A stretch of DNA of 64,000 nucleotides from Neobacillus sp. PS3-34 (lineage in GTDB: Bacteria > Bacillota > Bacilli > Bacillales > Cytobacillaceae), in contig NZ_CP133267.1 of NCBI RefSeq assembly GCF_030915465.1, forward strand, positions 4,329,001 through 4,393,000, read 5' to 3'. The notes beneath the pieces are model-generated. The model worked only from the letters and a program-made list of their open reading frames with translations, was not told the DNA's origin and did no database searches. This document shows, piece after piece, positions 1-63,723 of this stretch. The translations under genes and the position numbers were made by a program. How positions within the stretch are numbered: position 1 is the stretch's first letter; every line of letters starts with the position of its first letter.

Positions 1-1092
1 AAATCGTTTCAAGCAGAACCCCGGTTAAAAACATAGAAATGCCAATGCACGTATTCGCTACAGTTGCAGAAAAAGCAAAATAGGCCCATGCAGCCATGAT
101 GGCATGGTTTCCATCACGGCTGTATCCATTAACGTATTTCCAACGCCACTGAAGACAGTCAGTATTCCAAACATTATTACTACGAGTGCAAAGGAATGGA
201 CCTGGCTAATGGAAGATAAAACCACTCCTTCCATAAGGAGGCATAAAAATGCAAAGGGAAGATAATAATTTCTAATTTTTGAAGAAAGTATGGGGCTAAG
301 AATTAACCCAGTCCCAAGCACACTGTAAAGAATTCCAACTCCCAGTCCCCCCATATGAAATACTTTTACGGCGTAGACACTTAACAGGACATTTTCTATT
401 CCATTAATCAAAGGGTTCAACAAGTCGAATGTCAACAGCATTAATACAAACGATGAGGCAAGAGCAAGTGAAAGAATACCATTTTTCTTAGGAACTTCAT
501 GTCTTGTTGTTTGAACTTCTTTTGATTCCAGAGTAGGAATAGAACTTATTATCCAACCTGCCGATACAAACGACAAAATATTAATTACAAAGGCAGCACT
601 TGGCCAACAAAAATGCAACGACTCCACCGCTCAATGCCCCGATTATTAATACAAATCCTAAAGAAACTTGTTCCCACGAATTCACTTCCTTAATGCGGCC
701 AGTTTGAACGATGGCGGGAATGCCTGCTTTCCTGGCTGGACCATACAATGCTTCACCAGATGAGAGTAAAAATGAGCCAGTATACACAATCCACATATCA
801 TCTGCAGTATTGATAAACAAAAAAGAGATGGCAATTATTGCTCGAATAAAATCAGTGGTAAACATTAATTTTTTTCTAGTCCATTTATGGGCAAATTTGC
901 TGCTTAAGGGCCGAAAAGGAGAAAGGGAATCATTCGCAATCCCATCGTAATACCCACTGCCATTCCCGACCCTGTAATTTCCAAAATGATTGTCAGTAAT
1001 GCAACCTGACTGAAACGATCACCGATACCATTAACAATTCCAGCAAAGAATAATTTCCGATAGGAGTTTTCCTCTTTTAGGGTTTGAAACAC
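1..1092 (-). CDS. MFS transporter, N-terminal part, cut by window edge and frameshifted
   Basis: Integral membrane major facilitator transporter; substrate unknown. A likely GTG start lies at 1092 behind a GAGGTGA ribosome binding site. The N-terminus has the family's first-helix pattern (NGIGDRFSQVALL), followed by the GPARKAGIPAIV and PSAAFVINILSF segments and a later ANTCIGISMFLTGVLLET segment that runs off the window at base 1. The frame breaks three times, near 909-912, 602-605 and 83-86, each time on a GGCC. Adding C residues there restores one continuous MFS protein. Identity as MFS is fairly sure; whether the breaks are real is doubtful because the same context breaks many other genes here. 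Confidence 0.75.
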
Positions 1093-1118
1093 AAGAAATC
1101 ACCTCAATAATCATGTGA

Positions 1119-1158
1119 ATCTAATTCAATAATAATCTAATTAGATAATAATCTAATT
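1119..1158. promoter_or_regulatory. Three ATCTAATT direct repeats with 16-bp period
   Basis: ATCTAATT occurs at 1119-1126, 1135-1142 and 1151-1158, exactly 16 bp apart. The middle copy is part of the palindrome TCTAATTAGA (1136-1145). The block lies 27-66 bp upstream of the GTG start of the leftward MFS gene and between it and the rightward gene at 1258, so it is a plausible operator. No regulator is assigned. Confidence 0.4.
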
Positions 1159-1257
1159 GATAAATTTTGTAAATAAAATTCCGAAAAAATATATTCGTAC
1201 TGGCTGCATAATAAATAATGAACTTAATATAAATAACAGTGATAGGGGGAGTCGGAG

Positions 1258-1545
1258 ATGGCGAATAGGTATGTACTAAGATTTTTTTATGATGAAGAAC
1301 ATACAATAGCTGTGCCAGTGAAAGCGGATAATGCAGAAATGGTTTCCCAAAAGGTTATTTCTTCATATCTTAAGAAAGATTCATGGATTTCATTTCCTGT
1401 CAGGGACAAATATAATAGAGTGATGGGATCGGAACTTATTTCGGTAAATTTGTTAAAGGTAAAGTACTTTAAAGTAGAGATACCCACAAAGCTTTATCAG
1501 GACAAATTTGATGAAACCGATTTTATTGAGCTGTGTGATTCCTGA
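1258..1545 (+). CDS. Hypothetical protein, 95 aa
   Basis: An unrecognised small soluble protein, rich in aromatic and charged residues, with no signal peptide or membrane helix. The ATG follows a GGGGGAGTCGGAG purine-rich site, and an intrinsic terminator lies 27 bp after the stop, so it looks like a monocistronic gene. It is divergent from the MFS transporter, sharing an intergenic region with ATCTAATT repeats. No function can be inferred. Confidence 0.7.
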   Translation: MANRYVLRFFYDEEHTIAVPVKADNAEMVSQKVISSYLKKDSWISFPVRDKYNRVMGSELISVNLLKVKYFKVEIPTKLYQDKFDETDFIELCDS

Positions 1546-1571
1546 CATACCTAAGATAACAATACCCATTT

Positions 1572-1607
1572 AACGCTGAGCCTTCATCTTAAGGTTCAGC
1601 GTTTTTT
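1572..1607 (+). terminator. Rho-independent terminator
   Basis: ACGCTGAGCCTT pairs with AAGGTTCAGCGT around a short loop and is followed by a T run. It closes the 95-aa gene. Confidence 0.85.
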
Positions 1608-1712
1608 AGTTAAGCGTGCGAGATAGGTATCGTAAAAAAATTCCATTATATTTATTAAAAGATAAAATTTACCAAAAAATACTTGCTAATATGATGCCTC
1701 TTCAATACAATA

Positions 1713-1736
1713 AAAAATGACAACAATGTCATTTTT
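1713..1736. promoter_or_regulatory. Palindromic operator candidate upstream of tetR
   Basis: AAAAATGACA and its exact reverse complement TGTCATTTTT are separated by 4 bp and end about 24 bp before the TTG start of the TetR gene. This is the usual place and form of a TetR autoregulatory operator. It could also act as a weak hairpin. Confidence 0.45.
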
Positions 1737-1759
1737 ATTTCGTTCTGGAGGATTAAGTT

Positions 1760-2394
1760 TTGACACCTAAAATATCTAAAAGCGAGAAAGAAAAAAGGCG
1801 AATGCATATCATCCATTCTGCAACGGAGGTATTTGTACGTAAAGGTTTTGTAACCTCAACCATGCAGGATATTGTGGATGAAACAGGCATGAGCCGCGGC
1901 TGGGTTTATATTTATTTTTCAAGCAAAGAGGAAATCATGAAGGCTATTTTGGCCAAAATGACAAAGAAACAGAAGCACAGATTACAAACCTCTCAACAAG
2001 TGGACTTCCAATCTGGCAAGGTCTGTGTGGGATAATCGACGTATTGGAACAGCAACTGAATAATGCTGGTGATGATTTAGCCATTGTTATATATGAATAC
2101 TTTATCAGCGGATGGAAGCAGCCGGAGCGTCGTTCATTTCTTGAGGAGCACTACCGAAAGCAGCATGATTACCTCATTACCTATTTACAAAAAGGAGTTA
2201 CAAACGGTGAGTTTACACCAAAAGCTGACGTTGAGGTCATTGTTAAAATGATCACCTCTTATTTTGAGGGCGTTCTGCTTCACACCAAAGCTGCTGGCAA
2301 CAAAAATGTACGTGTTGAAGCACAACTCAGACTTTTCAAATTGGTTTTAAAAGATATTTTACAAGTTAAAGGTATGGGAGGGGAATCTAAATGA
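1760..2394 (+). CDS. TetR/AcrR family regulator (YfiR-like), frameshifted
   Basis: A DNA-binding repressor. The N-terminal helix-turn-helix is clear: AEVF-type helix, then TMQDIVDETGMSRGWVYIYFSSKEEI at about residues 34-59. The C-terminal ligand domain follows (YFISGWKQPERRSFLEEHY). The overall pattern resembles B. subtilis YfiR, which also sits next to an MFS gene. Translation starts at TTG (1760) behind TGGAGGATT. The frame breaks at GGCC 1951-1954; one added C gives a 211-aa protein that crosses the break smoothly (ILAQNDKETEAQI). The stop overlaps the next gene's ATG (ATGA), so it probably controls that exporter. Confidence 0.85.
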
Positions 2395-3664
2395 CTATTT
2401 TTAAAAATAGGCTTTTCACAAAATTGTTTTTAGCTACATTTACGTCACAGCTTGGATCGACGATCGGCAATGTAGCATTTGCTTTTTATTTACTGGATCA
2501 TTTTAGTAAACAGCCATTTTACGCAACGATTGCGGAGTTAATGTATTCATTGCCGATTTTATTTGTTTTCTTTTTGGTCGGGGTAGCTGCAGATAGGCTG
2601 GACAGAAAAAAAATTGCTGTAAACTCAGATTGGATTCGGGCGGGTTTAACTGTCCTCTTATTAGCTGTTATTTACTTCAACATTTTATGGCTGGTTTTTG
2701 TCATTTTATTTATACGAAGCACCGTATCCAAATTCTTCGCTCCCGCTGAAATGAGTATTTTACAGGGCGTTCTTGATAAAGAGCAGTATATGCAGGCATC
2801 AGGCCTCAATCAAACTGTTATGGGATTATTTATGCTTTTTGGAATGGGGATGGGGCCATTTCGTATCATTATTTAGGATTAATGGGAACTGTGATGATTG
2901 ATGGAATTAGCTTTGTCATATCTGCATTCTTAATTGGCAGCTGCAATATTCCTCTTGATGCACGACTTCCAAATGGAAAAACACATATTAAAGAAATCAA
3001 TATTTCTACCGTGCTCACTGATTTTAAAGATGGACTAAAGTATATTCTTGATTACAAGCTCTTAAAATCGATTGTTTCTGGATTTTTAGTTTTTGGTCTA
3101 ATTAATGGTGGTTTTGCCGTTCTTCCGCTTTTTACAATGAAATACAAAATGGCGCCAGACAATTATGAGCAGTATTCTTCCATGTTTTCTATTTTTTTAG
3201 GAATTGGCTTTGTAGTGGGGAGCGGGATTGGCAATCGACTTATTCAAACATTTAAGGTTCATAGAGTATTAATTGGTGGAGTACTCCTAACCGGAGTTTT
3301 TACACTTATTTTAGGCACTCTGGAAAACATATGGCTCTATTTTACACTGGTCTTCATTATGGGTGTAATTTTAGCGCCGGTGAATGTGGCTCTTTCAGGA
3401 TGGATGACAGAGTTAGTAGATCCAAAGTTTATGGGAAGAGTTTCAGGTTGGGTTGATCCTTTGATGATGTTAGCCCATTCTGTTTCCCTAGGAATCATTG
3501 CGGTCATTTTCCCGGCCTATATAAAAATGGAAACCATATATTACGCCATCGGCATTCTTATGTTGGGTGTGGGGAGTTATTATCTTATCGTTTTACCGAA
3601 GCTGACAAGGAATCAAACAAAAGCAACGGACAGCCCTGAATTATCAACCGCTACACTTAAGTAA
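2391..3664 (+). CDS. MFS efflux transporter (YfiS-like), frameshifted
   Basis: A major facilitator drug-efflux-type permease in the cytoplasmic membrane, about 424 aa with roughly 12 helices. The VGVAADRLDRKKI loop between helices 2 and 3 is typical. It is translationally coupled to the TetR gene (ATGA overlap), and the pair resembles yfiR-yfiS, suggesting regulated export of a toxic compound. The frame breaks at GGCC 2854-2857; adding one C yields GPISYHYLGLMG, joining the two halves. A strong terminator follows the stop. The substrate is unknown. Confidence 0.85.
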
Positions 3665-3681
3665 GTATGCATATAATTATA

Positions 3682-3720
3682 AAAAAATGAAGCTCTTCCA
3701 ATGGAAGAGCTTCATTTTTT
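3682..3720. terminator. Bidirectional terminator
   Basis: A perfect hairpin (ATGAAGCTCTTCC / GGAAGAGCTTCAT, 3-nt loop) flanked by A and T runs. It can end both the rightward MFS operon and the leftward tRNA-Arg gene. Confidence 0.9.
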
Positions 3721-3724
3721 CTAG

Positions 3725-3798
3725 TGTCCCAGAGAGGATTCGAACCTCCGACCTACAGTTTAGGAAACTGTTGCTCTATCCTACTGAGCTACTGAGAC
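3725..3798 (-). tRNA. tRNA-Arg (anticodon CCU)
   Basis: A 74-nt cloverleaf. The acceptor arms GTCTCAG/CTGGGAC pair, the D arm contains AGCTCAGTAGG, and the anticodon stem ACAGT/ACTGT encloses the loop TTCCTAA, giving anticodon CCU (reads AGG). The T arm has GGTTCGAATCC. CCA is not encoded. Confidence 0.95.
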
Positions 3799-3950
3799 AT
3801 TATTTAAGGTGCATTATTAATTATACTTCTGGAACACCAAATGTCAATACAAAAATGTTTCGATTGAAAAACTAATCCGGTAAGAAGGTAGGCAACTAGT
3901 TTAATAGCATAATTATATTATGTAAACAAGACATATGATAATCTGTAATA

Positions 3951-3979
3951 TTGACATTTTTTAAAAATTCACTTATTAT
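3951..3979 (+). promoter_or_regulatory. SigA-type promoter of the S-box operon
   Basis: TTGACA (3951-3956) and TATTAT (3974-3979) are separated by 17 bp and lie about 37 bp upstream of the riboswitch aptamer. Confidence 0.75.
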
Positions 3980-4015
3980 CATTTTGAATAATTAAAAAAC
4001 TCAAAAAATAATTGT

Positions 4016-4166: not shown

Positions 4167-4227
4167 TTGTTCAAATCCAAGTTTTACACTTGGAAAAGTT
4201 GTGATTCAGACAGAGGAGAGATGAGAA

Positions 4228-6245: not shown

Positions 6246-6250
6246 TATAT

Positions 6251-7671: not shown

Positions 7672-8737
7672 ATGTATTATGGAAACCGAAAACTTTACAC
7701 CTTATTAGCATTAATCTTATTTATTTTTCCAGTCTGTCAGCAGCACGGGATAATATACGACATAGTAGCAAAAGAAAGAAGAGCATCTGCCTTGGAGCCT
7801 GATACAAAGCAAATGAATAAGATCCGTTCCTATTTAAAAAATAACGATATTAATGGAAGTATTGCTGTCATGTCGGGGAATAAATTAATAGTTAACGAAG
7901 GGAACGGTTTTGCTGATTTCGAAAAAAAAATACGGAATCATCCTGAAACTACCTTTCCAATTGCTTCAATCACTAAGTCACTTGTAGCCACTAGTTTTAT
8001 GCAGCTGGAAGAACGGGGATTGGTAAATCTTCAGGATCCTGTTTCGAAATATATTGACCATTTCCCTAATGGTGAAAATATAACAATCCAACACTTATTA
8101 ACAAATACTTCGGGTATTCGGCGATTGCATTCAATCAGGAAAAATAGCACACCTAAAGATATAATCGAAGAAATAAAAAAAAGGCTGTCCGTTTTCAAGC
8201 AGGGACCAGGTGGGATTACAAAGACACTAATTATATGGTATTAGGATACATTTTAGAGAAAATCACAGGCATTTCATTACATTCCTATATTGATAAAAAC
8301 ATTTTTAAGCGGGCATCTATGAACCATTCCGGCTTTATTAGCAAAGAAAATCCCGTACCATATGCAGCTATGGGATATTTCAAGGATCAGAATCAGTTTC
8401 AGCCCGTAAAAGAAATTAATATTTTTTTGCTTTACGGAGCAGGAGATATTTACTCCACTGCTTCGGATTTATGTAAATACGATTTATCCCTAATGAACGG
8501 GCAACTCATATCAAAAAAATCATTGAGAAAAATGCTGAGGCCGGATCAAAATCGGGTTATGGACTTGGGATGTATGTAAAACATAATTATATTTTTAGCA
8601 GAGGATATTTGGGGGGATGGAATTCAATTCACGTTATTTTTAATGGTAAAACATCTGTCGTAGTTTTATTGAACGTCCGAAATCAAAAAACAGATATCCT
8701 TAAAATTGCAAAAGATATATACAGGCTGGCAGTATAA
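7672..8737 (+). CDS. Serine hydrolase, beta-lactamase class C/PBP4* family, frameshifted
   Basis: An exported or membrane-anchored penicillin-binding-type hydrolase of about 355 aa. It opens with a signal/anchor segment (LYTLLALILFIFPVC). The catalytic S-x-x-K is in PIASITKSL and is followed by MQLEERGLVNLQDPVSKYI and the ITIQHLLTNTSGI region typical of the family. After the first break the second motif reads WDYKDTNYMVLGYILE, where the usual YxN is Y-K-D. Breaks lie near 8205 (GGGACC context) and at GGCC 8539-8542; restoring one base at each gives an intact protein ending at 8737 with the GYLGGWNS region near the C-terminus. The target (cell wall peptide or another ester) is unknown. Confidence 0.8.
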
Positions 8738-22388: not shown

Positions 22389-23779
22389 ATGAAAAAAACA
22401 GTAATTAAGGATTTATTCAGAAATCAGGAAAGCTATGCAGACCAAAAAGTTCAGTTATCCGGTTGGATTCGGACTGTAAGGGATTCCAAAACTTTTGGTT
22501 TTATTGAATTAAATGATGGTACTTTTTTTAAGGGTGTACAAGTGGTATTTGATGACCAGCTGGAAAACTTTAAAGAAATTGCCAAGCTGCCTATCAGTTC
22601 TTCTATAACGGTCGAAGGAACTTACGTATTAACACCGCAAATGAAGCAGCCTTTTGAAATCAAAGCAGAAAAAATTATCATTGAAGGAAATTCAAACGCA
22701 GATTATCCATTGCAGAAGAAAAAGCATACCTTCGAATACTTAAGAACGATTGCACATCTTCGCCCAAGAACTAATACTTTTTCAGCTGTTTTCAGAGTAA
22801 GATCACTTGCTTCTTATGCTATTCACAAATTCTTTCAGGACAAAGGCTTTGTCTACGTACACACACCAATCATTACTGGAAGTGATACAGAAGGAGCTGG
22901 AGAGATGTTCCGGGTTACTTCTCTGGATTTTGATAAGCTTCCAAAAACAGAAGAAGGAAAAGTGGATTTAAGCAAGGATTTCTTTAACAAAGAAACGAAC
23001 CTGACAGTAAGCGGGCAATTATCGGCGGAAACCTTTGCACTTGCATTCCGTAATGTCTATACATTCGGCCAACTTTTAGAGCTGAAAACTCAAACACGGC
23101 GCGGCATGCTGCTGAATTCTGGATGATTGAGCCTGAAGTAGCATTTGCAGAATTAGTAGATGTAATGGACCTTTCTGAAGAGATGGTTAAATATGTGATC
23201 GGCTATGTTCTTGAACAAGCTCCTGAGGAAATGGCGTTCTTCAATAGCTTCATTGACAAAACGTTAATGGAAAGACTGAATAATGCATATGGGTCTGATT
23301 TCGGCAGAGTTACTTATACTGAAGCAATCGAAATTTTAAAGAATTCAGGAGAAAAATTCGATTATCCTGTCGATTGGGGATTGGATCTTCAAACAGAGCA
23401 TGAGCGCTATTTGTGTGAAAAAGTTTATAAGCGCCCGGTATTTGTGACCGATTATCCAAAAGAGATAAAAGCATTTTATATGAGAACAAATGAAGATAAC
23501 AAAACTGTTGCAGCTACAGACTTGTTGGTTCCAGGAATCGGAGAGCTTATCGGCGGAAGCCAACGGGAAGAACGCGAAGAAGTATTGGCTAGCCGAATTG
23601 AAGAGCTTGGGATGGATAGGGAAGATTACTGGTGGTACCTTGAACTGCGTAAGTACGGAGAAACCAAGCATTCAGGATACGGCCTAGGATTTGAACGTCT
23701 TATCATGTATTTGACAGGAATGACCAATATCCGCGATGTTATTCCTTTCCCAAGAACAACTGGAAATGCAGAGTTTTAA
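22389..23779 (+). CDS. asnS: Asparaginyl-tRNA synthetase, frameshifted in this sequence
   Basis: A class II aminoacyl-tRNA synthetase that charges tRNA-Asn. The N-terminal OB-fold anticodon-binding domain ([21 protein letters not shown]) is followed by the catalytic domain with motif 2 region and motif 3 ([16 protein letters not shown]). Restored length is about 463 aa, normal for the long Bacillus form. The frame breaks at GGCC 23067-23070, turning the conserved [23 protein letters not shown] into nonsense; one added C repairs it exactly. Because the enzyme is needed for protein synthesis, the break is almost surely an artefact. Controlled by a T-box leader. Confidence 0.95.
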
Positions 23780-26535: not shown

Positions 26536-27446
26536 TTGCAAAAACCCATTTATGTACAAACGACCATCCAAACTCCAATGAATGAAATTTGGGACCATAC
26601 ACAGAATCCTAATCTGCACACAGAATGGGATCTCCGCTTCACTGAAATCACCTATCTTAAGCGGGAGGAAAGTGAGCCCCAGAGATTTTTATATAAAACA
26701 AAAATCGGTTTTGGATTGGAAATTGCAGGTACAGGTGAAAGCAGCGGGACAATAATGAAAGAAACGGGGGAGAGGGTATCATCTCTTAAATTTGAAACAG
26801 ACAACCCTATTTCATTGATAATGAAAGGACGAGGGTATTGGAAATACACTCCCAAAGGAGACATGGTTATATTTGAAACACAATACGACTATGAGACTCG
26901 ATATAGCAAAGTGGGAAAGCTGATCGATTCTACTATTTTTGGCCGTTAATGGGCAGAGCTACAGCATGGAGCTTTGACTCTTTAAAAATATGGCTTGAAA
27001 AAGGGTATCATCCTAGGCTTCTTCTGCAAAAAACACTGACATATTGGAGTGTCTGTTTCTTGCTGGCTTTCATATGGATTTATCAAGGACTTGTTCCGAA
27101 AATGATCAACACTCATCCCGAGGAAGTTAAAATGCTATTGACATTAATCAAGATACCTATGGATGGAGAATTGGCAATAAGGTACATAGGCTTGGCGGAA
27201 GTACTATTTGGCATTGTCTGGTTATTGCCCTTTCAAAAACGAGGGCTTTTTCTTATCCATATCATCATGATATTATCTCTTACTTTATCAGCCTGGCTGG
27301 CCAACCCGCAAAGCTTTATCATGCCGTTTAATCCAATTACCCTCAATCTGGCCCTGATGTTCCTGTCGATTATCGGGTATTTAAATAGCAGCAACCTGCC
27401 TTTAGCAAGAAATTGCAAAAGAAGCAAAAGGGGGACGATGAATTGA
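26536..27446 (+). CDS. yndG: SRPBCC-DoxX fusion membrane protein (YndG-like), frameshifted
   Basis: The first 150 residues form an SRPBCC/START-like ligand pocket (EIWDHTQNPNLHTEWDLRF), and the rest is a four-helix DoxX-like membrane domain. The frame breaks at GGCC 26941-26944; one added base gives IFRPLMGRATAWSFDSLKIW, a continuous 303-aa protein. Two starts are possible: ATG 26482 with TAGGAG, or TTG 26536 with GGGAG; the latter matches where the domain begins. It heads a unit with yndH- and yndJ-like genes, the B. subtilis order. Function unknown. Confidence 0.75.
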
Positions 27447-29714: not shown

Positions 29715-31177
29715 TTAATTCGAAAGATCGCAGTCTTCCAGTTTAACTATTTTTGTTTTCTTAACTAGCTTATATCCCAGCCAAAAGACAAGGAACAATG
29801 GCAGGCCAATATAGGAAACCATGATGCCGTTCCAGTCAATATGATCTCCCATGAAAGCAGAGTAATTTTGACCAAGAATGACAATTCCACAAAGTACAAA
29901 AGCAAATATCGGCCAAAAGGGAAGAACGATGATTTGTATGGAAGTTCATTTAAATCCTTGCCCTGCGCAATAAATGCTTTTCGGAAACGATAATGGCTGA
30001 TCGCAATTCCAAGCCATGCAATGAAACCAGACATTCCAGAAGCATTTAACAGCCATACGTAAACCGTACCTTCCCCGTATAAGGAAGCAAGAAAAGCAAT
30101 TGTACCCACGAGTGTGGTTACAATCAAGGCGTTTACAGGGACACCGTTTTTATTTAATTTACCAAGGAATTTAGGCGCCCATCCTTCACGCGCCAGATCC
30201 CACAGCATTCTGGTAGAAGCATACATACCAGAATTTCCTGCAGATAATACAGCTGTTAAAATGATTGCATTCATAACAGAGGCTGCAAAGGCAATGCCTG
30301 CTTTTTGAAATACAATTGTAAACGGACTTACTGTTACTTCTCCACTGGCAAGATTTGCGTTTGTATAAGGAATAAGAAGTCCGATAACGAGAATGGCAAG
30401 CACATAAAACAATAGAATGCGCCAGAAAACTTGCTTTACAGCACGAGGAATGTTTTTCGAAGGATCCTCTGTCTCTCCTGCAGCCACACCCAATAGCTCA
30501 GTACCCTGGAAAGAGAATCCAGCCGCCATAAAAATGCCCAGCATGGTCATGAACCCTCCATGGAAAGGGGCATCCCCAAGCGTAAAATTCTTAAATCCAA
30601 CCGCACTGTCTCCCATTATTCCAAAAATCGTTAAAAAGCCGAAAATAATAAAAATGATAACAGTTATTACTTTGATGAGTGAAAACCAATATTCCGCTTC
30701 TCCAAAACCTTTAACAGACAGGTAGTTCAATAAGAACATAATAACCAGGAAAATACTGCTCCAAATAATAGAAGGTGTATGAGGGAACCAAAACTTCATA
30801 ATAATCGTAACAGCCGACAGTTCTGCCGCAATGGTTATTGCCCAGTTATACCAATAATTCCAGCCAAGCGCGAACCCTAAAGATGGATCAACAAATTTCG
30901 TAGCATACGTACTGAAGCTTCCTGCTACAGGCATATATGCAGCCATTTCAGCAAGGCTTGTCATTAAAAAGTAAACCATGATTCCAATCAGGACATAGGA
31001 TAAAAGGGCACCTCCAGGACCAGCAGTATGGATTGCACCACCGCTCGCTAAAAATAAGCCTGTACCAATGGTGCCGCCAAGCGAAATCATCGTCAGGTGG
31101 CGAGCTTTAAGGGATCGCTTTAATCCGGAAGGTTCTTTTGTTCCATGATTTTTTTCTCTGTGATGTGTTGTTTGCAT
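29715..31177 (-). CDS. Lysine permease, amino acid-polyamine-cation superfamily, frameshifted
   Basis: A 12-helix amino acid transporter of the AAT/LysP type, restored length about 487 aa. Helix 1 carries MISLGGTIGTGLFLASG, and the AGFSFQGTELLGVAAGETEDP segment is typical. The lysine riboswitch in front makes lysine the likely substrate. The frame breaks at GGCC 29911-29914 near the C-terminus; one added C extends the protein through GPIFAFVLCGIVILGQNY to a TAA at 29715-29717. As given, the last two helices read out of frame. Confidence 0.9.
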
Positions 31178-34536: not shown

Positions 34537-35099
34537 ATGGTGAGCAATTTGTATGAAAAGTTTCAGGAACTTTATGAAAAATACCATGAGGATCTCTTTT
34601 CCTTTTTATATTATTTGGTAAACAATCACGAACTGGCCAGGATCTGGCTCAGGAGGTTTATATAAAGGTTTTGAAATCTTATGAAAATTTTAAAGGGAAC
34701 AGCAGCGAAAGAACTTGGCTTTTTTCAATCGCAAGAAACACCGCAGTCGATTATTTCCGTAAACAGGCTGGGTGGAAAAAAAGGATTTTTAGTTCATTTG
34801 ACTGGGCTAATCAGGAATTAGTTGATCCTGCCCCATTGCCAGAAGAAATTGCTCAAAAAAGCGAACAGGCTAAAAGCTTATATTTATGTCTGGAAAAATG
34901 TTCGATTGATCAAAAGATGGTTTTAGTACTTCGTTACCTTCAAACCATGTCAATTAGCGAAACAGCTTCCGCCCTGGGCTGGTCAGAAAGCAAGGTGAAG
35001 ACTACCCAGCATAGAGCGTTAAAAAAGGTTAAAGGATTATTGGAAGAAATCAGCAGGAGGGAGGAACATAGATATGATCAGCAAAAAATGTTCAGATAA
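34537..35099 (+). CDS. sigX: ECF RNA polymerase sigma factor SigX, frameshifted
   Basis: An extracytoplasmic-function sigma factor of about 183-187 aa. Region 2 reads LYEKFQELYEKYHEDLFSFLYYL, then LAQDLAQEVYIKVLKSYENFKG after correction; region 4 is ISETASALGWSESKVKTTQHRALKKVK. The frame breaks at GGCC 34635-34638 and one added C restores region 2. The start is ATG 34537 or TTG 34549. It is followed, with a 26-bp overlap, by an RsiX-like anti-sigma gene, which identifies it as SigX. In B. subtilis SigX controls cell-envelope modification genes such as dltA and pssA. Confidence 0.9.
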
Positions 35100-39440: not shown

Positions 39441-39618
39441 TATTCTTCATTTAATTCTGATATATCCACAACTGTGCGCTCCTCGAGGGGCCACGTAAAT
39501 GGACTGTTGCTGTCCGCCCATCTTCATTTAATTGATCAATCCAAACAGAGGCTCCATTATATTTAACCTCTACATCTGCAGAAGAAGATAAAATTTGTTT
39601 TAGTCTTCTTTCGTTCAT
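39440..39618 (-). CDS. SspH-type small acid-soluble spore protein, frameshifted
   Basis: A 59-aa spore core protein of the H family: MNERRLKQILSSSADVEVKYNGASVWIDQLN at the start and, after correction, EERTVVDISELNEE at the end. The break is at GGCC 39489-39492 (a G4CC run on the plus strand); restoring one C gives the expected HLRGP-LEERTV joint. GGGGAG precedes the ATG. SspH proteins are made in the forespore. Not visible as a long frame because of the break. Confidence 0.82.
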
Positions 39619-48161: not shown

Positions 48162-50448
48162 ATGGCTATGCCTGAAGAATATAAGATTTCAGTCCGCCCC
48201 CTTGTAGAATATGTGTTCCGGCAGGGCAGCATCGACTCCCGTTTCCATCCCAGTTCCTCTATGACCGATGGAACAAGAGCTCATCAAAAAATTCAAAAAA
48301 CCTATCGGGAATGTGATCAAAAAGAAGTTCCTCTAAAAACAAGCGTTAAGCATAAAAGTCTGCTTTTTCATATTGAGGGGAGATGTGATGGCATTATTGC
48401 ACTTCCTGAGGGGAAAATGATGATTGATGAAATCAAATCAACTTCAGGCAGACTTGAAGGAATTTCAGAAGATTCGCATCCAGTACACTGGGCACAGGCT
48501 ATTTGTTATGCCTTTATGTTTGCAAAAGAAAAGCAGCTCGATCAAATAACAGTCCAGTTAACTTATTACCAAATTGCTGAAGAAGAAATTAAGCAGTTTA
48601 AAAAAACCTTTCTCTTTGATGAATTGGAGAAATTTCTAGGTAATATAATTGAAATCTACTACCCATTTGCCAAATTAATAATAAATCATAGAACACTGAG
48701 CATTCAAAGCATAAAAAATATAAATTTTCCTTTTGACTCATTTCGGCAGGGCCAAAAGAAACTTGCCGCTTCTGTTTATGCATCTATTAGGGACGACAAA
48801 GAATTATATGTAAATGCGCCTACAGGGGTTGGCAAAACCATTTCAACCCTGTTTCCGTCTATAAAAGCAATGGGTGAAGGTATGGTTAAACGGATTTTCT
48901 ACCTAACTGCCAAAACAATTACAAGGCAGGCTGCAGAAGAAAGCCTGAGCTTAATGATTAAGAAAGGCCTAGTCTTGAAAGCCGTGACAATAACAGCTAA
49001 GGAGAAAGTTTGCTTTAATGACCAGACTGTTTGCCAGAAAGACCTTTGTCCATTCGCAGATGGTTATTATGACAAAGTTAACTCAGCCATTTTGGATATT
49101 TATGAACACGAAAATCTTATGGACAGAATGACAATTGAAAAGTATGCGAGAAAACATTCCATTTGCCCCTTTGAGTTTTCTCTGGATCTTGCATATATAG
49201 CTGATGTGATTATTTGTGATTATAATTACGTTTTTGACCCTCGGGTTTATTTAAAGCGGTTTGCCGATGAACAAAAAAAGTGGTCTATTTTATTAATAGA
49301 CAAGGCCCACAATTTAATTGACCGGGCGAGAGGAATGTTTTCTGCACGTCTAGTTAAATCGGCTTTTCTATTAATAAAAAAGGCTTATAAAGGGAGAAAC
49401 AAGCCTATTTATGAATGCTCAAAGAAAATTAATCAATATTTTATCGATTTAAGGAAAAAAGCGAATAAAAGAGGGGAATGCATCCTAGATGGACTGCCTG
49501 ATGCTCTTATTAATCATCTCGAGGAATTCATTGAATACGCGGAGGGTGAGCTAGCTGCAGGAGGAAACGATTCTGTTCTTCTGGATGTTTACTTTTCTTC
49601 GCTTGCGTTCGTTAAAATCTCTAAATTTTATAATGACCGTTATGTTACCTTTGCCGAGCTTGATCGGAACGATGTAAACCTGAAGCTTTATTGCATTGAT
49701 CCATCTGAATTATTAAGTAAGATGGGAAAAGGTTATAAATCCAAAATTTATTTTTCTGCCACGCTCCGCCATAGATTATTTTAAGGAAATGCTGGGAGCT
49801 GAAGAAACTGCTTATCAATTTGCCATCCCCAGCCCTTTTTCCAGCAGCCAGTCAGAGATATTTATTAGTCCTATTTCAACAAGATATCGGGACAGGGAAA
49901 GGTCGATAAGCCCCATTTCAACTATTATTAGGGATCTGGTTAGTGAAAGGCCAGGCAACTATTTTATATTTTTTCCTTCCTATCAGTACATGAAAGATGT
50001 TTATGAGCTATTCGTAAAGGAGAACCCTTTTATGGATACGATAATCCAGCTTGGGCAAATGGCAGAAGATGAAAGAGAAAGCTTTTTAAAACAATTTCGT
50101 ACCGACAGGGAGAAACCTCTGATTGGCTTTGCAGTAATGGGCGGCATATTCTCGGAGGGGGTGGATTTAAAGGGCGACAGGCTTAAAGGCGTGGTTGTAG
50201 TAGGAACAGGCTTGCCACAAATATGTCTTGAACGAAACATAATTATGGACTATTTTTCAAGTCAAGGAAAAAACGGCTATGATTATTCCTACATTTATCC
50301 TGGCTTTAACAAAGTTTTACAGGCTGGTGGCCGCCTTATCCGATCTGAACAGGATACAGGAACGATCGTTCTGATAGATGACCGTTTCCTTGAAAAAAGA
50401 TATCTAAACCTCTTACCTACAGAATGGAAGGATTTCAACATCATATGA
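48162..50448 (+). CDS. PD-(D/E)XK nuclease-XPD/DinG-like helicase fusion, frameshifted, DKAH box
   Basis: About 762 aa. The N-terminal 170 residues form a Cas4/RecB-like nuclease (GRCDGII and IDEIKST, with Asp and Glu-x-Lys). The helicase part has Walker A NAPTGVGKTISTLFP, four cysteines spaced as an iron-sulfur cluster (KVCFN, TVCQ, DLCPF, SICPF), and a C-terminal half with GGRLIRSEQDTG. The Walker B box reads DKAH, not DEAH, because codon 49302-49304 is AAG, so ATPase activity is in doubt. The frame breaks near 49758-49768 (CTCCGCCATAG); adding two bases gives FSATLSPIDYFKEMLG. GAGGGGAG precedes the ATG. Confidence 0.82.
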
Positions 50449-52650: not shown

Positions 52651-53126
52651 TTATATTTTTTTGAATCCTTCTTCTTCAAGATATTCGACGGCTTCTTCGT
52701 AAGTATTAAAAGTATTATCCAGATTAAGACCGAAATAAATATTCCACATTTCGTCTTCTTCAATTAGGGTAAGGGAATTATTTTCTTCGTCTGCCCAACG
52801 TTCTTCCTGCTGGTCTTCAATAATCGCTTCTTCCTCAACAGAATTTTCGTTTGGAGAAAGGGAACGAATGGAAGCGCTGATTAATTGTCTAAGTTCATCA
52901 CCTGAGAAGTCGCGAATATTAACAAGGCCTTTTCGTCAGTTTGATAGCCGGATAAATTTCCCGCATATACAAAACCATTCCCATTAGGATGCAAATGATA
53001 AACAATATTCTTTTTGTCTGAAACGCTATCTTCAAAGTGAAAATTAACCCTTTTAAGGGAAACATCTTTTCTTTCTAATTCCGGAAATGATTCAATAATT
53101 GCTAATTTTTCTTCAAATGTAAGCAT
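52651..53126 (-). CDS. Hypothetical acidic protein, about 158 aa, frameshifted
   Basis: A protein with an N-terminal folded part (TFEEKLAIIESFPELERKDVSLKRVNFHFE, then VYHLHPNGNGFVYAG) and an acidic C-terminal half (EEEAIIEDQQEERWADEENN, then TYEEAVEYLEEEGFKKI). The frame breaks at GGCC 52926-52929; one added C joins DEKA to LVNIRDFSGDELRQLI. TTGGAGG lies before ATG 53126. I recognise it only as a Bacilli-type protein of unknown function. The very acidic C-terminus suggests a soluble protein. Confidence 0.7.
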
Positions 53127-54367: not shown

Positions 54368-55833
54368 CTAAGAAGCATTTTTAAAAGATTTTGTTGTTGT
54401 CTTTTTGCCAGGCTGTTTTAATCCTACAATAAATCTAATTGTAAAAATTAATGAGGCAATCACTACCATGATTCCGCACAGTGCTCCAACCTGATCCGTT
54501 CCAATCCACTGGGGCAAATGATCTGCCCATCTTCTGGGAGCACTTAATTTTCCTGCATAAAGGAAAGAGCCAACTAATCCTGTGAAAAAAGCGAAATATA
54601 TTGAAATTCCAAAGTTATCATAGCTATTCTGTTTCTGTTTTCCTTCTGTTTTGCTGAAATAATACATAAAACCAAATATCATCGCTACTACACCCATTCC
54701 CATATAAGTGTGGAAATGGCCCGGGACCCATTTCGTGTTGTGCATAATATGGTTGATAACAATCGTAGCATCAATGATAGCCGGAACCGCACCAGCAACC
54801 CATCCAAACATTGAAAGGAAAAACATGCTCGATGCAAAGTCCCACTTAATTCCAGAACGGTAAACAATCATAAGTGCTCCATAGGCTGTGACCACCATTA
54901 CTGGAAGACCATTGGCATAAGAAAAAATCTGACCGACAATTAACATCCATTGTGGAACAGCAAAATCCATTAATAAATGATGTGTGTAAATCATTAATGT
55001 AAACAGGGTGGAAAAGTTCCAGGCTATCAAAAATGCTTTATTCGATTTCCATGGCCTGCCTGTATACTCTGATAACACCTCGTAAACGGCAATAACAGCC
55101 ATATAAATAGTACAGTTGGCAAAAATATGTCCGAATGCATAGGTTAAATGCTTGGCAAACATTGGATCAAAAGTAAACGAAGGATATATGATATTAATTA
55201 TTGAAAAGACAAGTGCTGTTGCACCAGCAAGTATTCCTGTAGAATTTGCGATTATCACCATAGTGGTCGCTACTGCTGCTGGAGGGGGCCATAACCCTTC
55301 TTCCCCCTGAAGATGTAATCCCAGCCAAGTGATTTCCCTAGACCTCCGTATTCCTTTATCAGCCTTGTTGCAAGATAAGCGTACATGATTAAATAACCAG
55401 ATCCTAAAATTAGGAGGCCGAATAAGTATAGCAGTGCCCCTGTTGTCCCATTTAGTTTTGACGAAAAAGAGGGAAGAGGATATAAAAATGTCCATCCATC
55501 TGAAAATTGGTACCCAAAAATAGCAGTTAATATCATGGCAACTCCGATAAAAGATAATGCAAGGTTGATAAAAAATATTTTTGCATTCAATTCGATATGC
55601 CTTGAAAGGAAATACCACATAATTGCACTTCCTCCGAGTGCCGCTATGCCTATCATGCCAGTTCCGTGCATTGTCATAAGCTTATAAAACCATTGCGGTG
55701 AAATTTTATACAAATTTCCTTGACTTAAAAGCATGATTACACCGAATGTCATCATCAAAACAAGAATGACAGAAGTCGCTACCAACGCAAGGACAACCCC
55801 ACGCTTAATGGAAGGGCTTACTTCTCTATTCAT
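54368..55833 (-). CDS. cbaA: ba3-type cytochrome c oxidase subunit I, frameshifted
   Basis: A 12-13 helix haem-copper oxidase core subunit of about 488 aa, reducing oxygen to water and pumping protons. Haem and copper ligands visible: MTMHGTGMIG, YTHHLLMDFA (CuB histidines) and PGHFHTYMGMG. It belongs to the B-type (ba3) branch with high oxygen affinity. The frame breaks at GGCC 55287-55290 (a G5CC run); restoring one C gives GKKGYGPPPAAVATTMVIIANSTG. It overlaps the end of the subunit II gene by 8 bp. Confidence 0.9.
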
Positions 55834-58930: not shown

Positions 58931-59898
58931 ATGGAACATACCGTTTTGGATGATCAGATGAGTGAAGAGGAAAAGCAACATCGCTTCATGAAACGCATTG
59001 ATGCAGGGGAAAAGATTGAAGCGGATGATTGGATGCCGGATGAATACCGGAAAACACTCATTAAGCTAATTTCGATGCATGGTATAAGCGAAATCATGGG
59101 AGCGCTGCCTGAAAAGGAATGGGTACCAAAAGCTCCATCATTAAAAAGAAAGCTTGGGATTATGGCCAAGGTACAGGATGAAATGGCGATGGCCAGCTAT
59201 TACTAAGGGTAGCCGAAGACCTTATGAAGCCGTATGGCAAAAACCGCGAAAATATAATGCAGGATTTGTTTAGCGGAGATTTAAAATTCCATAATGTTTT
59301 CCATATGGAGGCGCCAACTTGGGCGGATGCAGGACTGATCGGCTGGCTTGTGGATGGGGCAGCAATTATCACACAAACCAATATGTTGGATGCTTCTTAT
59401 GGTCCATATGCACGGGCTTTAAAGCGGATTTGCGCAGAAGAGGTTTTTCATGCCCAGCATGGTGAAGCTATTATTATGGCGCTTGCAGAAGGAACTCCTT
59501 TACAAAAAGAAATGGTACAGGAATCACTGAACCGCTGGTGGGAAGCATTGTTAATGTTTTTTGGACCCGGCGATGCAACTACGACTGGGACTTCAAAGCA
59601 GGATATTACAATTAAATATAAAATCAGGACAAAAACAAACGAGGACCTTAGACAGGATTTCTTTACAAAATATATTCCGCGAGTTCTGTCGCTCGGGCTC
59701 AAGCTTCCTGATGAAACGATGCATTTTGACCAAGAAAGCGATCATTGGATTTACCGTCAGCCAGACTGGAGCAAGTTTAAGGAGATAATAAAAAATAAAG
59801 GTCCGAAATCAGAATCCCGGTTGAGGCTCCGAAAAATTTCATACGAAACCAACGACTGGGTGAGAGAAGCACTAAGTTCTAAAACTACAAGTCCATGA
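58931..59898 (+). CDS. paaA: 1,2-phenylacetyl-CoA epoxidase subunit PaaA, frameshifted
   Basis: The catalytic di-iron subunit of the phenylacetyl-CoA epoxidase, about 322 aa. Iron ligands are in helices such as DEMAMAQLLL (after repair), ICAEEVFHAQHGE (E-x-x-H), and the FHNVFHMEAPTWADAG and WWEALLMFFGPGD segments. The frame breaks at GGCC 59191-59194; one added C gives MAQLLLRVAEDLMKPYG. AGGAGGTGG stands before ATG 58931. It is the first gene of paaABCD and starts aerobic phenylacetate breakdown via CoA thioesters. Confidence 0.95.
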
Positions 59899-59922
59899 TA
59901 TTTATAGGAAGGGGGGATTCCG

Positions 59923-60263
59923 ATGACAGAAGGTTTTTACACGGAATATGAAGTATTTAGCCGCCGTTCGGACACGACACCGCTCCAATACCAGTTTTCC
60001 CTGCTTGCCCCAAACGAAGAGCTCGCATTGGTAATGGCCAGGAAAATTTTATGCGCCGTGAACCTGCTGCTGATATCTGGGTAGTTAAAAGAACAGATAT
60101 TAGAAAAATGACACCTGAGGAAAAGGAGTCGTTGAAAAGGCTGGACAATAAAGATTATCGAAATACCAAGGGTTATGGATACTTGAAAAAGAAATGGCGC
60201 CATTATGAACAAGGGATGCTGGATGAGAATGAAATTATGTCGTGGGGAGGGAAAAAGCCTTAA
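59923..60263 (+). CDS. paaB: 1,2-phenylacetyl-CoA epoxidase subunit PaaB, frameshifted
   Basis: A 113-aa subunit of the epoxidase complex, needed for its function. EYEVFSRRSDTTPLQYQFSLLAPNEELALVMA at the start, and, after repair, QENFMRREPAADIWVVKRTDIRKM. The frame breaks at GGCC 60036-60039, and one added C repairs it exactly. GGAAGGGGGGA precedes the ATG. The TAA overlaps the paaC start by one base (TAATG). The C-terminal tail is longer than in E. coli PaaB, as in other Bacilli. Confidence 0.93.
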
Positions 60264-61084: not shown

Positions 61085-61143
61085 TGAGAAGTTTGCAAAA
61101 TATTCTTGAATAAAACCTTAAAACATTTAAGGGACTGATTAAT

Positions 61144-61647
61144 GTGCATAATGTATCTGCCGAAGAATTAACGCACCAAGTATTGAAAGCGCTTCAAAAA
61201 GTACATGATCCTGAAATTTCGACTGTTTCCATCGTAGATCTTGGAATGCTTGAAGCAATCGAAATCACCTCTGATATTATTCGGGTGAAGCTGGTTCCGA
61301 CATTTCTTGGATGCCCGGCACTGGAAATCATTCGTCAAAATGTTGAAAGTGCTTTGAAATCCATTTCGGAAGAAAAAACGCTTGAAATTCTATTTATCTA
61401 TCACGTTCCCTGGACATCGGATCGAATTTCTGAGGAAGGAAGGGTTCGTCTTAAGGAATTTGGAATAGCTCCACCACCAAGATTTTTGACTGAAACAGGC
61501 AGCTGGGAAGTGGATTGCCCATACTGTGATTCTCCTTATACAACTCTAGAAAACCTCTTCGGCCTAACTGCGTGCAGGAGCATTCTTTACTGCAGGTCCT
61601 GCAAAAATCCTTTTGAAGCTATGAAACCTATGTCTATTAATATGTAA
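61144..61647 (+). CDS. paaD: Phenylacetate degradation protein PaaD
   Basis: A 167-aa protein with a DUF59/MIP18 domain (VLKALQKVHDPEISTVSIVDLGML, then LVPTFLGCPALEII) and a C-terminal zinc ribbon (CPYC and CRSC). PaaD is needed to supply or mature the di-iron or iron-sulfur centres of the epoxidase system. The start is GTG 61144 with AAGGGA in front. It lies 59 bp behind paaC in the same operon. E. coli paaE (reductase) is not next to it here. Confidence 0.93.
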   Translation: MHNVSAEELTHQVLKALQKVHDPEISTVSIVDLGMLEAIEITSDIIRVKLVPTFLGCPALEIIRQNVESALKSISEEKTLEILFIYHVPWTSDRISEEGRVRLKEFGIAPPPRFLTETGSWEVDCPYCDSPYTTLENLFGLTACRSILYCRSCKNPFEAMKPMSINM

Positions 61648-61654
61648 AAATATT

Positions 61655-61800
61655 AAAGCGCAAGCGTCCGTTTAGCGACGTATGGACTGGACCACTCCGA
61701 ACGAGATAAAGGAAACACGAAGAACGTAAGTGATTCGATGTTGACTTATCGTAAGGAGGAGAGGGAAGTCCACTAGTCGCTGGGCGCTGGAGCTAGACAT
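61655..61800. repeat. Interspersed repeat element, GCGCAAGCG...GGAGCTAGAC type
   Basis: Starts GCGCAAGCGTCCG and ends GGCGCTGGAGCTAGAC; its ends match those of the element at 11419-11651. Inner parts TAGCGACGTATGGACT and AGTCCACTAGTCGCTG can pair, so it folds as a long hairpin. It sits between paaD and the EthD gene and may affect mRNA processing there. Confidence 0.7.
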
Positions 61801-61859
61801 CAGTACAATTAGAAAATGATATTTTTTATCAAACAAAAAACTTTGAGGAGAGATGAAGA

Positions 61860-62168
61860 ATGATTAAAATGATCGCCCTTTACAAACACCCGGAAAATAA
61901 GGAAGTTTTCGACGAGTACTATAAAGGTACACATACACCTATCACTGAGAAAATACCTGGCCTCCGCAAAATGGAAGTAACTAAGATTATTGGCAGCCCA
62001 ATGGGGGGAGAAGGAAAGTATTACTTGATGTGTGAAATGTATTATGACGATATGGCTTCCTTTAAAGCTGCAATGAAAACCGATGAAGCAAAAGCTTCAG
62101 GGAAGGATGCAATGAAATTCGCTGGCGATTTAATTACTTTAATGATTGGCGAAGAAGTAAATGAGTAA
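61860..62168 (+). CDS. EthD family protein
   Basis: A 102-aa dimeric ferredoxin-like barrel protein: YKHPENKEVFDEYYKGTHTPITEKIPGLRKMEV is the EthD pattern, with His of GTHTP in the pocket. Members occur in degradation clusters for aromatic and ether compounds; here it likely assists a step of phenylacetate breakdown. GAGGAGAGA precedes the ATG, and the stop overlaps the next gene by 8 bp. Confidence 0.87.
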   Translation: MIKMIALYKHPENKEVFDEYYKGTHTPITEKIPGLRKMEVTKIIGSPMGGEGKYYLMCEMYYDDMASFKAAMKTDEAKASGKDAMKFAGDLITLMIGEEVNE

Positions 62169-62937
62169 TTTCGAATATATCGAAACAAGGGTAGAAGGCA
62201 ATATTGGATTTATCGAGCTTAACCGCCCCAAAGTGCTTAATGCCTTAAACCGTGGAATGATTTCCGAGATTTTAGCCGCGATGGATAATTTCGATCGGAA
62301 TGATGATGTCAGGGCAATGATTTTAAGCGGTAAAGGAAGATGCTTCGCCGCTGGCGCAGACATCGACGAAATGGCGGAAGCAGGTTCTGTGGATATTGAG
62401 TTGATGAATCAGTTTACAGACTGGGACCGCATCGCCTGGATCAAGAAACCGATCATAGGCGCTATTCATGGCTTTGCGCTTGGCGGAGCCTTTGAACTTG
62501 CACTTTGCTGTGATTTGCTGATTGCTTCCGAGGATGTTGAATTTGGTTTTCCCGAGGTACTTCTGGGAGTGATGCCTGGTGCCGGCGGAACGGTCCGTCT
62601 AACCAAATTAGCTGGAAAGACTAAGGCGATGGAATGGCTTTTTACGGGAAGAAGGATTTCAGCCAGCGAGGCGCTGCATTTCGGGATTATTAATAAAGCA
62701 GTTTCCAAAGAACTTCTTCTGGAAGAAGCCGTCCGCTTTGCGAATTCGATTGCGGTGCAGCCTCCTCTTTCGATTCGCTTTATTAAAGAATCTGTTTTAA
62801 AAGCAATCGATGCCAGCATTTATGAAGGCATGCAATTTGAACGTAAAAACTTCTCTATGCTTTTTTCCTCACAAGATCAAAAAGAGGGAATGAAAGCGTT
62901 TATCGAAAAAAGAAAAGCAAATTTCACAGGCAAATAA
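62161..62937 (+). CDS. paaF: Enoyl-CoA hydratase/isomerase (PaaF-like)
   Basis: A 258-aa crotonase-fold enzyme. The oxyanion-hole strands are AAGADIDEM and GAIHGFALGGAFELALCCD, and a catalytic Glu is present in FGFPEVLLGVMPGAGGTVRL (P-E-V-x-L-G). This residue set fits a hydratase such as PaaF, which hydrates 2,3-dehydroadipyl-CoA. It overlaps the EthD gene by 8 bp and lies 13 bp before a second crotonase gene. The exact step is inferred from the cluster. Confidence 0.85.
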   Translation: MSNFEYIETRVEGNIGFIELNRPKVLNALNRGMISEILAAMDNFDRNDDVRAMILSGKGRCFAAGADIDEMAEAGSVDIELMNQFTDWDRIAWIKKPIIGAIHGFALGGAFELALCCDLLIASEDVEFGFPEVLLGVMPGAGGTVRLTKLAGKTKAMEWLFTGRRISASEALHFGIINKAVSKELLLEEAVRFANSIAVQPPLSIRFIKESVLKAIDASIYEGMQFERKNFSMLFSSQDQKEGMKAFIEKRKANFTGK

Positions 62938-62950
62938 GGGGGCTACATAC

Positions 62951-63723
62951 GTGTTTGAAACAGTTCATTATGAAGTACGCGGCCCGGTTGCCTGGCTGAC
63001 GCTCAATCGGCCGAAAAATTAAATGCTTTTAATGAAAAATTAAATAAAGAGGTACAGCTTGCCGTAAAGGAAGCCTCCAGAAATGATGAAGTAAGGGCTG
63101 TTGTAATTACCGGGGCTGGCCGTGCGTTTTGTTCTGGCCAGGACTTGGAAGGTGTTGACGAAGGCCTGAATCTTGGAGAAGTTTTAAGGAGACGTTATAA
63201 CCCAATGGTCCTTGAGATCGAAAAATGTGAAAAGCCGGTGATTGCGGCCATTAATGGAGTAGCAGCTGGCGCGGGTCTTAGCCTTGCCCTTGCATGTGAC
63301 TTCCGAATTGCCTCTGAGAAAGCGAGTTTAATAGAAGCGTTTATTCATGTCGGTCTTATTCCGGATGCGGGCAATCTATATTACCTTCCACGTCTCATTG
63401 GCCATGCAAAAGCAATGGAGCTAGCTGTATTAGGTGAAAAGATTTCTGCAGCTGAAGCTTATAATCTTGGACTTGTAACTCGGACTGTTTCTGCGGATAC
63501 ATTTTACGAAGAGGTTTCTTCCTTCGCAGAAAGGCTTGCGTCCATGCCTACAAAAGCAATTGGCCTTATTAAACGAAACTTAAAAGCAAGCTGGCACTTA
63601 AGCCTGGAAGAGTTTTTGGAAAAAGACGCCCAGGGACAGAGAATTGCTGGACAGACAGAGGATCACAAGGAAGGCGTAAAGGCATTCCTTGAAAAAAGAA
63701 AAGCTGTTTTTAAAGGCCGCTAA
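62951..63723 (+). CDS. paaG: Epoxyphenylacetyl-CoA isomerase (PaaG-like), frameshifted
   Basis: A 257-aa crotonase-fold protein. CSGQDLEG and [20 protein letters not shown] form the oxyanion hole; the later region reads [21 protein letters not shown] with Asp in place of the hydratase Glu, which is typical of PaaG isomerases. They turn the epoxide into the oxepin-CoA. The frame breaks at GGCC 63009-63012; one added C gives [21 protein letters not shown] start at 62951. It follows the PaaF-like gene directly. Confidence 0.9.

What the first reader, a model, noticed from the sequence alone, without database searches (positions are those of the whole stretch)
83..63012. Sixteen frame breaks fall exactly on GGCC
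At least 21 breaks of otherwise sound genes can be mapped by rejoining family motifs. Sixteen lie on GGCC: 83, 602, 909, 1951, 2854, 8539, 23067, 26941, 29911, 34635, 39489, 52926, 55287, 59191, 60036 and 63009. In 15 of these one added base (normally a C) restores the frame, gives a gene length divisible by three, and recreates conserved motifs, for example GPTFRAEN in AsnRS. The one at 602 needs two Cs or a shorter T run. Essential genes are hit. I infer that the source data lose a base where a GGCC is followed by further C or preceded by further G. A GGCC-specific methyltransferase (HaeIII/BsuRI type) that disturbs long-read base calling would explain this; if so, the organism carries such a modification system outside the window. 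Not all GGCCC sites fail (62981 is intact).
Basis: partly seen in the sequence, partly recalled or inferred. Interest (0 to 1): 0.7.

Follow-up and report, generated by a model that had tools for sequence, protein, structure and literature searches.

The report
Methylated GGCC sites misread in sequencing
The broken genes in this bacterial genome are very probably reading errors, not mutations: bases were dropped at GGCC sites, and the genome carries a gene for an enzyme predicted to mark exactly those sites chemically.

Summary
Confirmed and extended. All 16 coordinates carry GGCC. Outside the window GGCC ranks first of 136 four-base words at lost-base breaks (58 of 100, background 0.062, p 2e-43). 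Two control genomes gave 1 break in 258 kb covered, against 126 in 456 kb here. GGCCC/GGGCC is the most depleted five-base word (316 seen, 536 expected), in coding and noncoding DNA alike. PolC, IF-2, PheT and AsnRS, each with no intact second copy found, are split there, so the breaks are not in the living cell. One other methylase-bearing assembly (G150) repeats the GGCC pattern; four more that I sampled have no breaks. G051, with a different C5-methylase, breaks at CCWGG instead (5 of 7). Base-calling loss at GGm5CC, most likely in nanopore data, is inferred; no reads or platform record were available. The kind of artefact is known; this instance and its methylase are new.

The parts
61..205 (-). 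frame break in an MFS-type transporter gene; GGCC at 83
   Evidence: stop-bounded interval, codon model break at 119
584..630 (-). second break of the same transporter gene; GGCC at 602; other frame offset
   Evidence: MFS_1 match in the upstream piece, below Pfam's cut-off
907..1018 (-). third break of the same transporter gene; GGCC at 909
1882..2032 (+). break between TetR_N and TetR_C_17 parts of a regulator; GGCC at 1951
2813..2864 (+). break in an MFS transporter; GGCC at 2854
   Evidence: homology to a G013 protein, 86% and 68% identity on the two sides
8534..8552 (+). break in a gene of unassigned function; GGCC at 8539
   Evidence: homology
23060..23078 (+). break in the AsnRS gene; GGCC at 23067
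   Evidence: 13 relatives' proteins; TIGR00457 split 2-219 and 213-455, no other match over the cut-off in the genome
26907..26946 (+). break upstream of a DoxX_3 domain; GGCC at 26941
   Evidence: upstream piece has no Pfam match
29903..29996 (-). break in a permease-like gene; GGCC at 29911
   Evidence: homology
34590..34665 (+). break in a SigX-type sigma factor gene; GGCC at 34635
   Evidence: NF007220 positions 3-30 and 17-178 in two frames
39451..39500 (-). break in an H-type small acid-soluble spore protein gene; GGCC at 39489
   Evidence: TIGR02861 positions 1-40 of 58 in the upstream frame; rest read by eye
52881..52938 (-). break in a gene of unassigned function; GGCC at 52926
   Evidence: homology to a G003 protein; codon model
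55273..55681 (-). break in a cytochrome/quinol oxidase subunit I gene; GGCC at 55287
   Evidence: PF00115 positions 3-141 and 163-423 in two frames
59179..59203 (+). break in paaA; GGCC at 59191
   Evidence: TIGR02156 positions 1-72 and 68-289; homology
59961..60081 (+). break in paaB; GGCC at 60036
   Evidence: TIGR02157 positions 1-37 and 31-89; homology
62974..63022 (+). break in paaG; GGCC at 63009
   Evidence: TIGR02280 from position 17 in the downstream frame; upstream frame read by eye

Best explanation
The frame breaks are errors of the deposited sequence. The bacterium methylates GGCC (most likely GGm5CC on both strands) with an M.HaeIII-like methylase of a type II restriction-modification pair outside the window. 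In the native DNA that was sequenced, the modified C changes the raw signal, so the base caller shortens the C or G run at GGCCC/GGGCC, or miscalls the site, and the consensus inherits the error because reads fail at the same place. Shown: the breaks, their concentration at GGCC, the depletion of GGCCC in coding and noncoding DNA, the broken single-copy essential genes, the methylase and endonuclease genes, a second assembly with the same pattern, and methylase-bearing assemblies without it. Inferred: that the methylase is active on GGCC, that the platform was nanopore, and that no adequate short-read correction was made.
For: GGCC first of 136 words at lost-type breaks outside the window: 58 of 100 by homology; 27 of 76 within 25 bases by codon model, p 2e-10. 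Breaks 126 in 456 kb covered against 1 in 258 kb for G013 and G023. GGCCC 316 of 536 expected against 0.83-1.03 in G003, G013, G023, G051, G056, G075, G134. Coding 115 of 219, noncoding 35 of 60. Relatives have GGCCC or GGGCC at 12 of 64 GGCC breaks (background 0.017) and Gly-Pro at 20 of 64 (background 0.027). AsnRS, PolC, IF-2, PheT split, no intact second copy; PheS, AddA, LonB, TrmFO, YhaM, AdhE split too. The only PF00145 hit is M.HaeIII-like. G150, with the methylase: GGCCC 69 of 116, GGCC at 6 of 15 lost-type breaks (background 0.029). G023, G056, G134, G075, with the methylase: 0 breaks in 254.7 kb covered together. Passages of PMC6591954: about 70% of consensus errors of then-current ONT callers in K. 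pneumoniae lay in Dcm motifs.
Against: No reads, platform or methylation data. Passages of PMC12345217: GGCC-centred nanopore errors in 2 of 10 P. aeruginosa isolates, mostly G-to-A changes, with no GGCC methylation found, so GGCC errors may arise without this cause, and the error type differs. 42 of 100 lost-type breaks outside the window lack GGCC; 19 of these hold CGCC/GGCG, which I read as the same sites miscalled because relatives have GGNCC at 8 of 18, though GGCC itself at only 2 of 18; the rest are unexplained. Runs of C also rank high (CCCC 17 of 76 within 15 bases). GGCC is enriched at breaks of the other frame offset by homology (6 of 17) but not by the codon model nor in the first, smaller homology set (0 of 5). 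A small sample of relative G009 also shows 8 GGCCC against 15 expected (40 kb). Two genes matching PF02384 (N6-methylase) exist and were not examined.
Confidence: 0.9

Rival explanations
1. Sequence-context error without methylation: the caller shortens GGCCC whatever its modification, for example as a short homopolymer effect.
For: CCCC is the second word at lost-type breaks by the codon model (17 of 76 within 15 bases). GGCC errors with no methylation found are reported in passages of PMC12345217.
Against: Other GC runs are not depleted (CGCCC, AGCCC, TGCCC, GCCCC at 0.98-1.11). Another break-rich assembly, G051, has GGCCC at 60 of 58 expected and breaks at CCWGG. The two assemblies sampled with the GGCC pattern both carry the methylase.
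Confidence: 0.08
2. Same cause, but a platform other than nanopore.
For: No platform record was available.
Against: Motif-bound consensus errors from base modification are documented for nanopore in passages of PMC6591954, PMC10687267 and PMC12392509. I made no search for other platforms.
Confidence: 0.08
3. Real mutations: slippage at methylated GGCCC, or cut-and-repair scars of the endonuclease.
For: The endonuclease gene is present and by kind would cut GGCC (site inferred).
Against: Split single-copy PolC, IF-2, PheT and AsnRS (essentiality recalled from B. subtilis). Noncoding sites are depleted as much as coding ones. Four methylase-bearing relatives have no breaks.
Confidence: 0.01
4. 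Selection against GGCCC because of the restriction system.
For: Bacillota loci with the methylase show mild depletion, 235 of 289 expected (0.81).
Against: G000 is at 0.51-0.59, methylase-bearing G023, G056, G134, G075 at 0.83-0.98, and avoidance would not break frames.
Confidence: 0.02

Closest known systems
Dcm-motif (CCWGG) consensus errors in nanopore assemblies (PMC6591954, passages seen)
   Same: errors of the consensus bound to the site of a 5-methylcytosine methylase the caller was not trained on
   Different: here the motif is GGCC with a neighbouring C or G, and the effect seen is mainly base loss that breaks frames
GGCC-centred nanopore errors in two P. aeruginosa isolates (PMC12345217, passages seen)
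   Same: residual errors nearly all at GGCC
   Different: there mostly G-to-A substitutions, 25 to 46 positions per genome, and no matching methylase found
Motif-specific modification errors in Listeria (PMC10687267, passages seen)
   Same: lineage-specific motif errors tied to a modification system in the genome
   Different: motifs GCAGC and GCTGG, mismatches rather than losses
HaeIII / BsuRI / Gva14018I restriction-modification systems, GGCC (PMC7559349 and PMC4081073, passages seen)
   Same: methylase aligned along M.HaeIII including its target-recognition stretch
   Different: endonuclease has no Pfam match, and the two genes are divergent; site and activity untested

Membership tests
GGCC-specific C5-methylase (M.HaeIII family) | C5 cytosine methylase domain | tested here: met
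   PF00145 235 bits over positions 1-319 of 324; TIGR00675 over its cut-off
GGCC-specific C5-methylase (M.HaeIII family) | target-recognition region like M.HaeIII | tested here: met
   best PDB match 1dct, E 4e-61, one alignment 136-422 to 25-318 through the recognition stretch; next best family covers the catalytic part
GGCC-specific C5-methylase (M.HaeIII family) | methylates GGCC | not testable with these tools
   only indirect: GGCC is the word at which the assembly fails
Type II restriction-modification pair | cognate endonuclease gene next to the methylase | tested here: met
   PADLOC REase_II, 796 bits, residues 1-572; divergent neighbour in 16 of 50 Bacillota methylase loci
BsuRI system proper | endonuclease homologous to R.BsuRI | not tested
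   no BsuRI sequence in any result; length 573 aa fits the recalled 576; the 1985 paper is not held
Druantia (types II/IV) | methylase is part of a Druantia system | tested here: inconclusive
   DruE4 and DruK-like genes follow, and the methylase's best PADLOC model is DruM; but 1 of 50 Bacillota methylase loci has a DruE match in the DNA held
Modification-induced base-calling artefact | errors concentrated at the motif of a methylase in the genome | tested here: met
Modification-induced base-calling artefact | errors vanish with short reads or amplified DNA | not testable with these tools
   no reads available

The most novel reading that the evidence does not exclude
Frame-break scars and missing words in finished assemblies are a readable record of the methylome: the word at which an assembly breaks names the site of its C5-methylase without any raw signal. 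Two assemblies break at GGCC and carry the M.HaeIII-like gene; a third with another C5-methylase breaks at CCWGG. Species-representative genomes may hold a predictable, correctable class of false pseudogenes, and the method could assign sites to uncharacterised methylases in bulk.
Probability: 0.6. Interest if true: 0.5.

Novelty: new member of a known kind. Interest (0 to 1): 0.38.

Why it matters
This genome stands as the sequence of its species in a public collection. From 316 GGCCC seen against 536 expected in 864 kb, and a baseline of about 0.87 in relatives, I estimate some 150 to 220 losses in that sample, or roughly 850 to 1,250 in the whole genome; this is extrapolation. Automatic annotation would call many of these genes pseudogenes, including parts of replication, translation and the phenylacetate pathway. 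The pattern also points to the site of an unnamed methylase, and the same word-and-break test can be run on any finished assembly.

Tried and rejected
Real mutation, programmed frameshifting and selection against GGCCC were considered and rejected (single-copy essential genes split, noncoding sites equally depleted, sound methylase-bearing relatives). I first suspected that the methylase was a Druantia DruM; the neighbourhood survey gave DruE near 1 of 50 Bacillota methylase loci, so I treat the Druantia-like genes as a defence-island neighbour. A second motif (CGCC/GGCG) among non-GGCC breaks looked like another methylase; no PF01555 gene was found, and relatives' codons point to the same Gly-Pro/GGNCC sites, so I read it as a second way of miscalling, not proven. 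The recognition site of G051's methylase could not be told from its closest models or structures, and six-base words around CCWGG are not clearly depleted there. The CCWGG motif in G051 was noticed after seeing the breaks. The codon model has a background of its own: 10 to 18 calls per 100 kb in G003, G013 and G023 against 29 in G000, partly overlapping genes. Of the nine other methylase-bearing genomes, five were sampled (G023, G056, G075, G134, G150) and four not (G066, G144, G145, G163). One of ten gene pairs sent to NCBIfam had no match at the threshold used (L163).
Full report
What the window is. The window is G000:C1:4329001-4393000 of a one-contig genome of 4,899,526 bases.

The observation. 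GGCC stands at 16 of 16 named coordinates, and all 16 stop-bounded joining intervals hold GGCC, with chance probabilities summing to 2.54. Seven sites are supported by homology to relatives' proteins, six by one protein family split over two frames, two more by a family match on one side and reading by eye (39489, 63009), and eleven by a codon-usage model. The sites 83, 602, 909 and 26941 rest on the weaker lines only. In the homology scan of the window 7 of 8 lost-type breaks hold GGCC (0.7 expected, P 7e-8), and one break of the other type does not.

Genome-wide tests. I fetched 40 stretches of 20 kb outside the window for these tests. With relatives' open reading frames as queries, 456 kb of 864 kb is covered and holds 108 lost-type and 18 other breaks. 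The same scan gives 1 break in 134 kb of G013 and 0 in 124 kb of G023. Outside the window 58 of 100 lost-type breaks hold GGCC against a background of 0.062 (p 2e-43), first of 136 words. A codon model that uses no relatives gives the same first rank, 27 of 76 within 25 bases (p 2e-10), and no such rank in G013, G023 or G003, with 0 of 16, 1 of 30 and 1 of 6. For breaks of the other offset the evidence is mixed: 6 of 17 with GGCC, 0 of 5, no enrichment by the codon model.

Missing words. GGCCC/GGGCC is the most depleted five-base word in G000, 316 seen and 536 expected, 126 and 245 in the first 20 stretches outside the window. Relatives lie between 0.82 and 1.08, except a 40-kb sample of G009 with 8 against 15. 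Coding and noncoding DNA are alike, 115 of 219 and 35 of 60. GGCCA is in excess (1,310 against 1,103), as expected if a run was shortened. At GGCC breaks, relatives have GGCCC or GGGCC in 12 of 64 cases (background 0.017) and a Gly-Pro pair in 20 of 64 (background 0.027).

Breaks without GGCC. Of 100 lost-type breaks outside the window 42 lack GGCC; 19 of these hold CGCC/GGCG (background 0.124). Relatives have GGNCC at 8 of the 18 that could be aligned (background 0.044), but GGCC itself at only 2 of 18. My reading, not proven, is that the same modified sites are sometimes miscalled by loss plus substitution. The remainder are unexplained.

The breaks are not in the cell. AsnRS is split at 23067, and no other place in the genome passes the family cut-off. 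PolC, IF-2 and PheT are split at GGCC, and whole-genome searches show only the two halves of each at high score. PheS, TrmFO, AddA, LonB, YhaM and AdhE are split as well; 9 of 10 gene pairs tested could be named. That PolC, IF-2, PheT and AsnRS are essential is recalled from B. subtilis.

The methylase. PF00145 finds one gene in the genome, at 4,779,104-4,780,117, about 386 kb past the window. Its best solved relative is M.HaeIII (1dct, E 4e-61), aligned through the target-recognition stretch. A divergent 573-aa gene matches PADLOC's type II restriction enzyme model over its whole length (796 bits) and no Pfam family. M.HaeIII makes GGm5CC on both strands (passage of PMC7559349). The next genes resemble DruK and DruE of Druantia. 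Of 50 Bacillota loci with the methylase, 17 have the endonuclease, 16 of them divergent, and 1 has DruE. No PF01555 gene was found; two PF02384 genes were and not studied.

The natural experiment. At E up to 1e-120, 10 of 193 genomes of the family have the methylase. I sampled five besides G000. G023, G056, G134 and G075 have no breaks in 254.7 kb covered together and GGCCC at 0.83-0.98. G150, of another genus, has 22 breaks in 124 kb covered; GGCC is first at lost-type breaks (6 of 15, background 0.029), and GGCCC is its most depleted word (69 of 116). Three of its seven other-type breaks hold GGCC too (my count). So the methylase is present wherever I saw the pattern but is not enough for it, as expected if the sequencing method must also allow it. 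G051, not among the ten, has 7 breaks in 32.6 kb covered; 5 of 7 hold CCAGG or CCTGG (background 0.020, p 6e-8, motif chosen after seeing them), and GGCCC is at 60 of 58. It has one PF00145 gene of unknown site.

Literature. From passages only: about 70% of consensus errors in a K. pneumoniae nanopore benchmark lay in Dcm motifs (PMC6591954); modification-bound motif errors are described in Listeria (PMC10687267); methylation caused 6.5% of errors in another set (PMC12392509); and GGCC-centred errors occurred in two of ten P. aeruginosa isolates without a matching methylation being found (PMC12345217). Passages of PMC11649196 concern frame effects of indels in general. PMC11610573 I saw in a listing with the start of its abstract only. 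My searches listed no paper that I recognised as tying base loss at GGCC to an M.HaeIII-like methylase; the library is partial.

Verdict. The breaks are an artefact of the deposited sequence that reports a real GGCC-type modification system. The step from methylated site to lost base, and the platform, are inferred.

Noticed in passing
G051 loci L243-L248: Frame breaks of this assembly fall on CCWGG (5 of 7), not GGCC; its single PF00145 gene (L252 1492-2847 +) has an unknown site.
   Followed up: partly
G150 loci L219-L223, L229-L242: A second methylase-bearing assembly with GGCC-bound breaks and GGCCC depletion; listed contamination 13%.
   Followed up: yes
L014 11196-12302 and 12318-17918, minus strand: DruK-like nuclease and DruE4-like helicase genes close to the GGCC-type restriction-modification pair.
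   Followed up: partly
L035, L036, L037: The methylase/endonuclease island is 99.95-100% identical over more than 6 kb between L035 (Heyndrickxia sporothermodurans) and each of L036 (Bacillus sp. PS06) and L037 (Cytobacillus firmus), which suggests recent transfer.
   Followed up: partly
non-GGCC breaks, e.g. L116 10121-10140, L129 16281-16300, L170 11559-11581: CGCC/GGCG stands at 19 of 42 lost-type breaks without GGCC; perhaps the same sites miscalled by loss plus substitution.
   Followed up: partly
window 8157-8214 and 49755-49779: Two frame breaks without GGCC, the second with the other frame offset.
   Followed up: no
G000:C1:3409398-3411716: Weak PolC-profile matches in three open frames of 158, 264 and 460 aa, perhaps another DNA polymerase III alpha gene (DnaE type) in pieces.
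   Followed up: no
protein P0068: A 509-aa protein listed under the chytrid Batrachochytrium dendrobatidis is 61% identical to the endonuclease over 78% of it; probably bacterial contamination of that record.
   Followed up: no
G163:C77:51519-52832: A methylase relative with two stops inside, perhaps decayed or misread.
   Followed up: no
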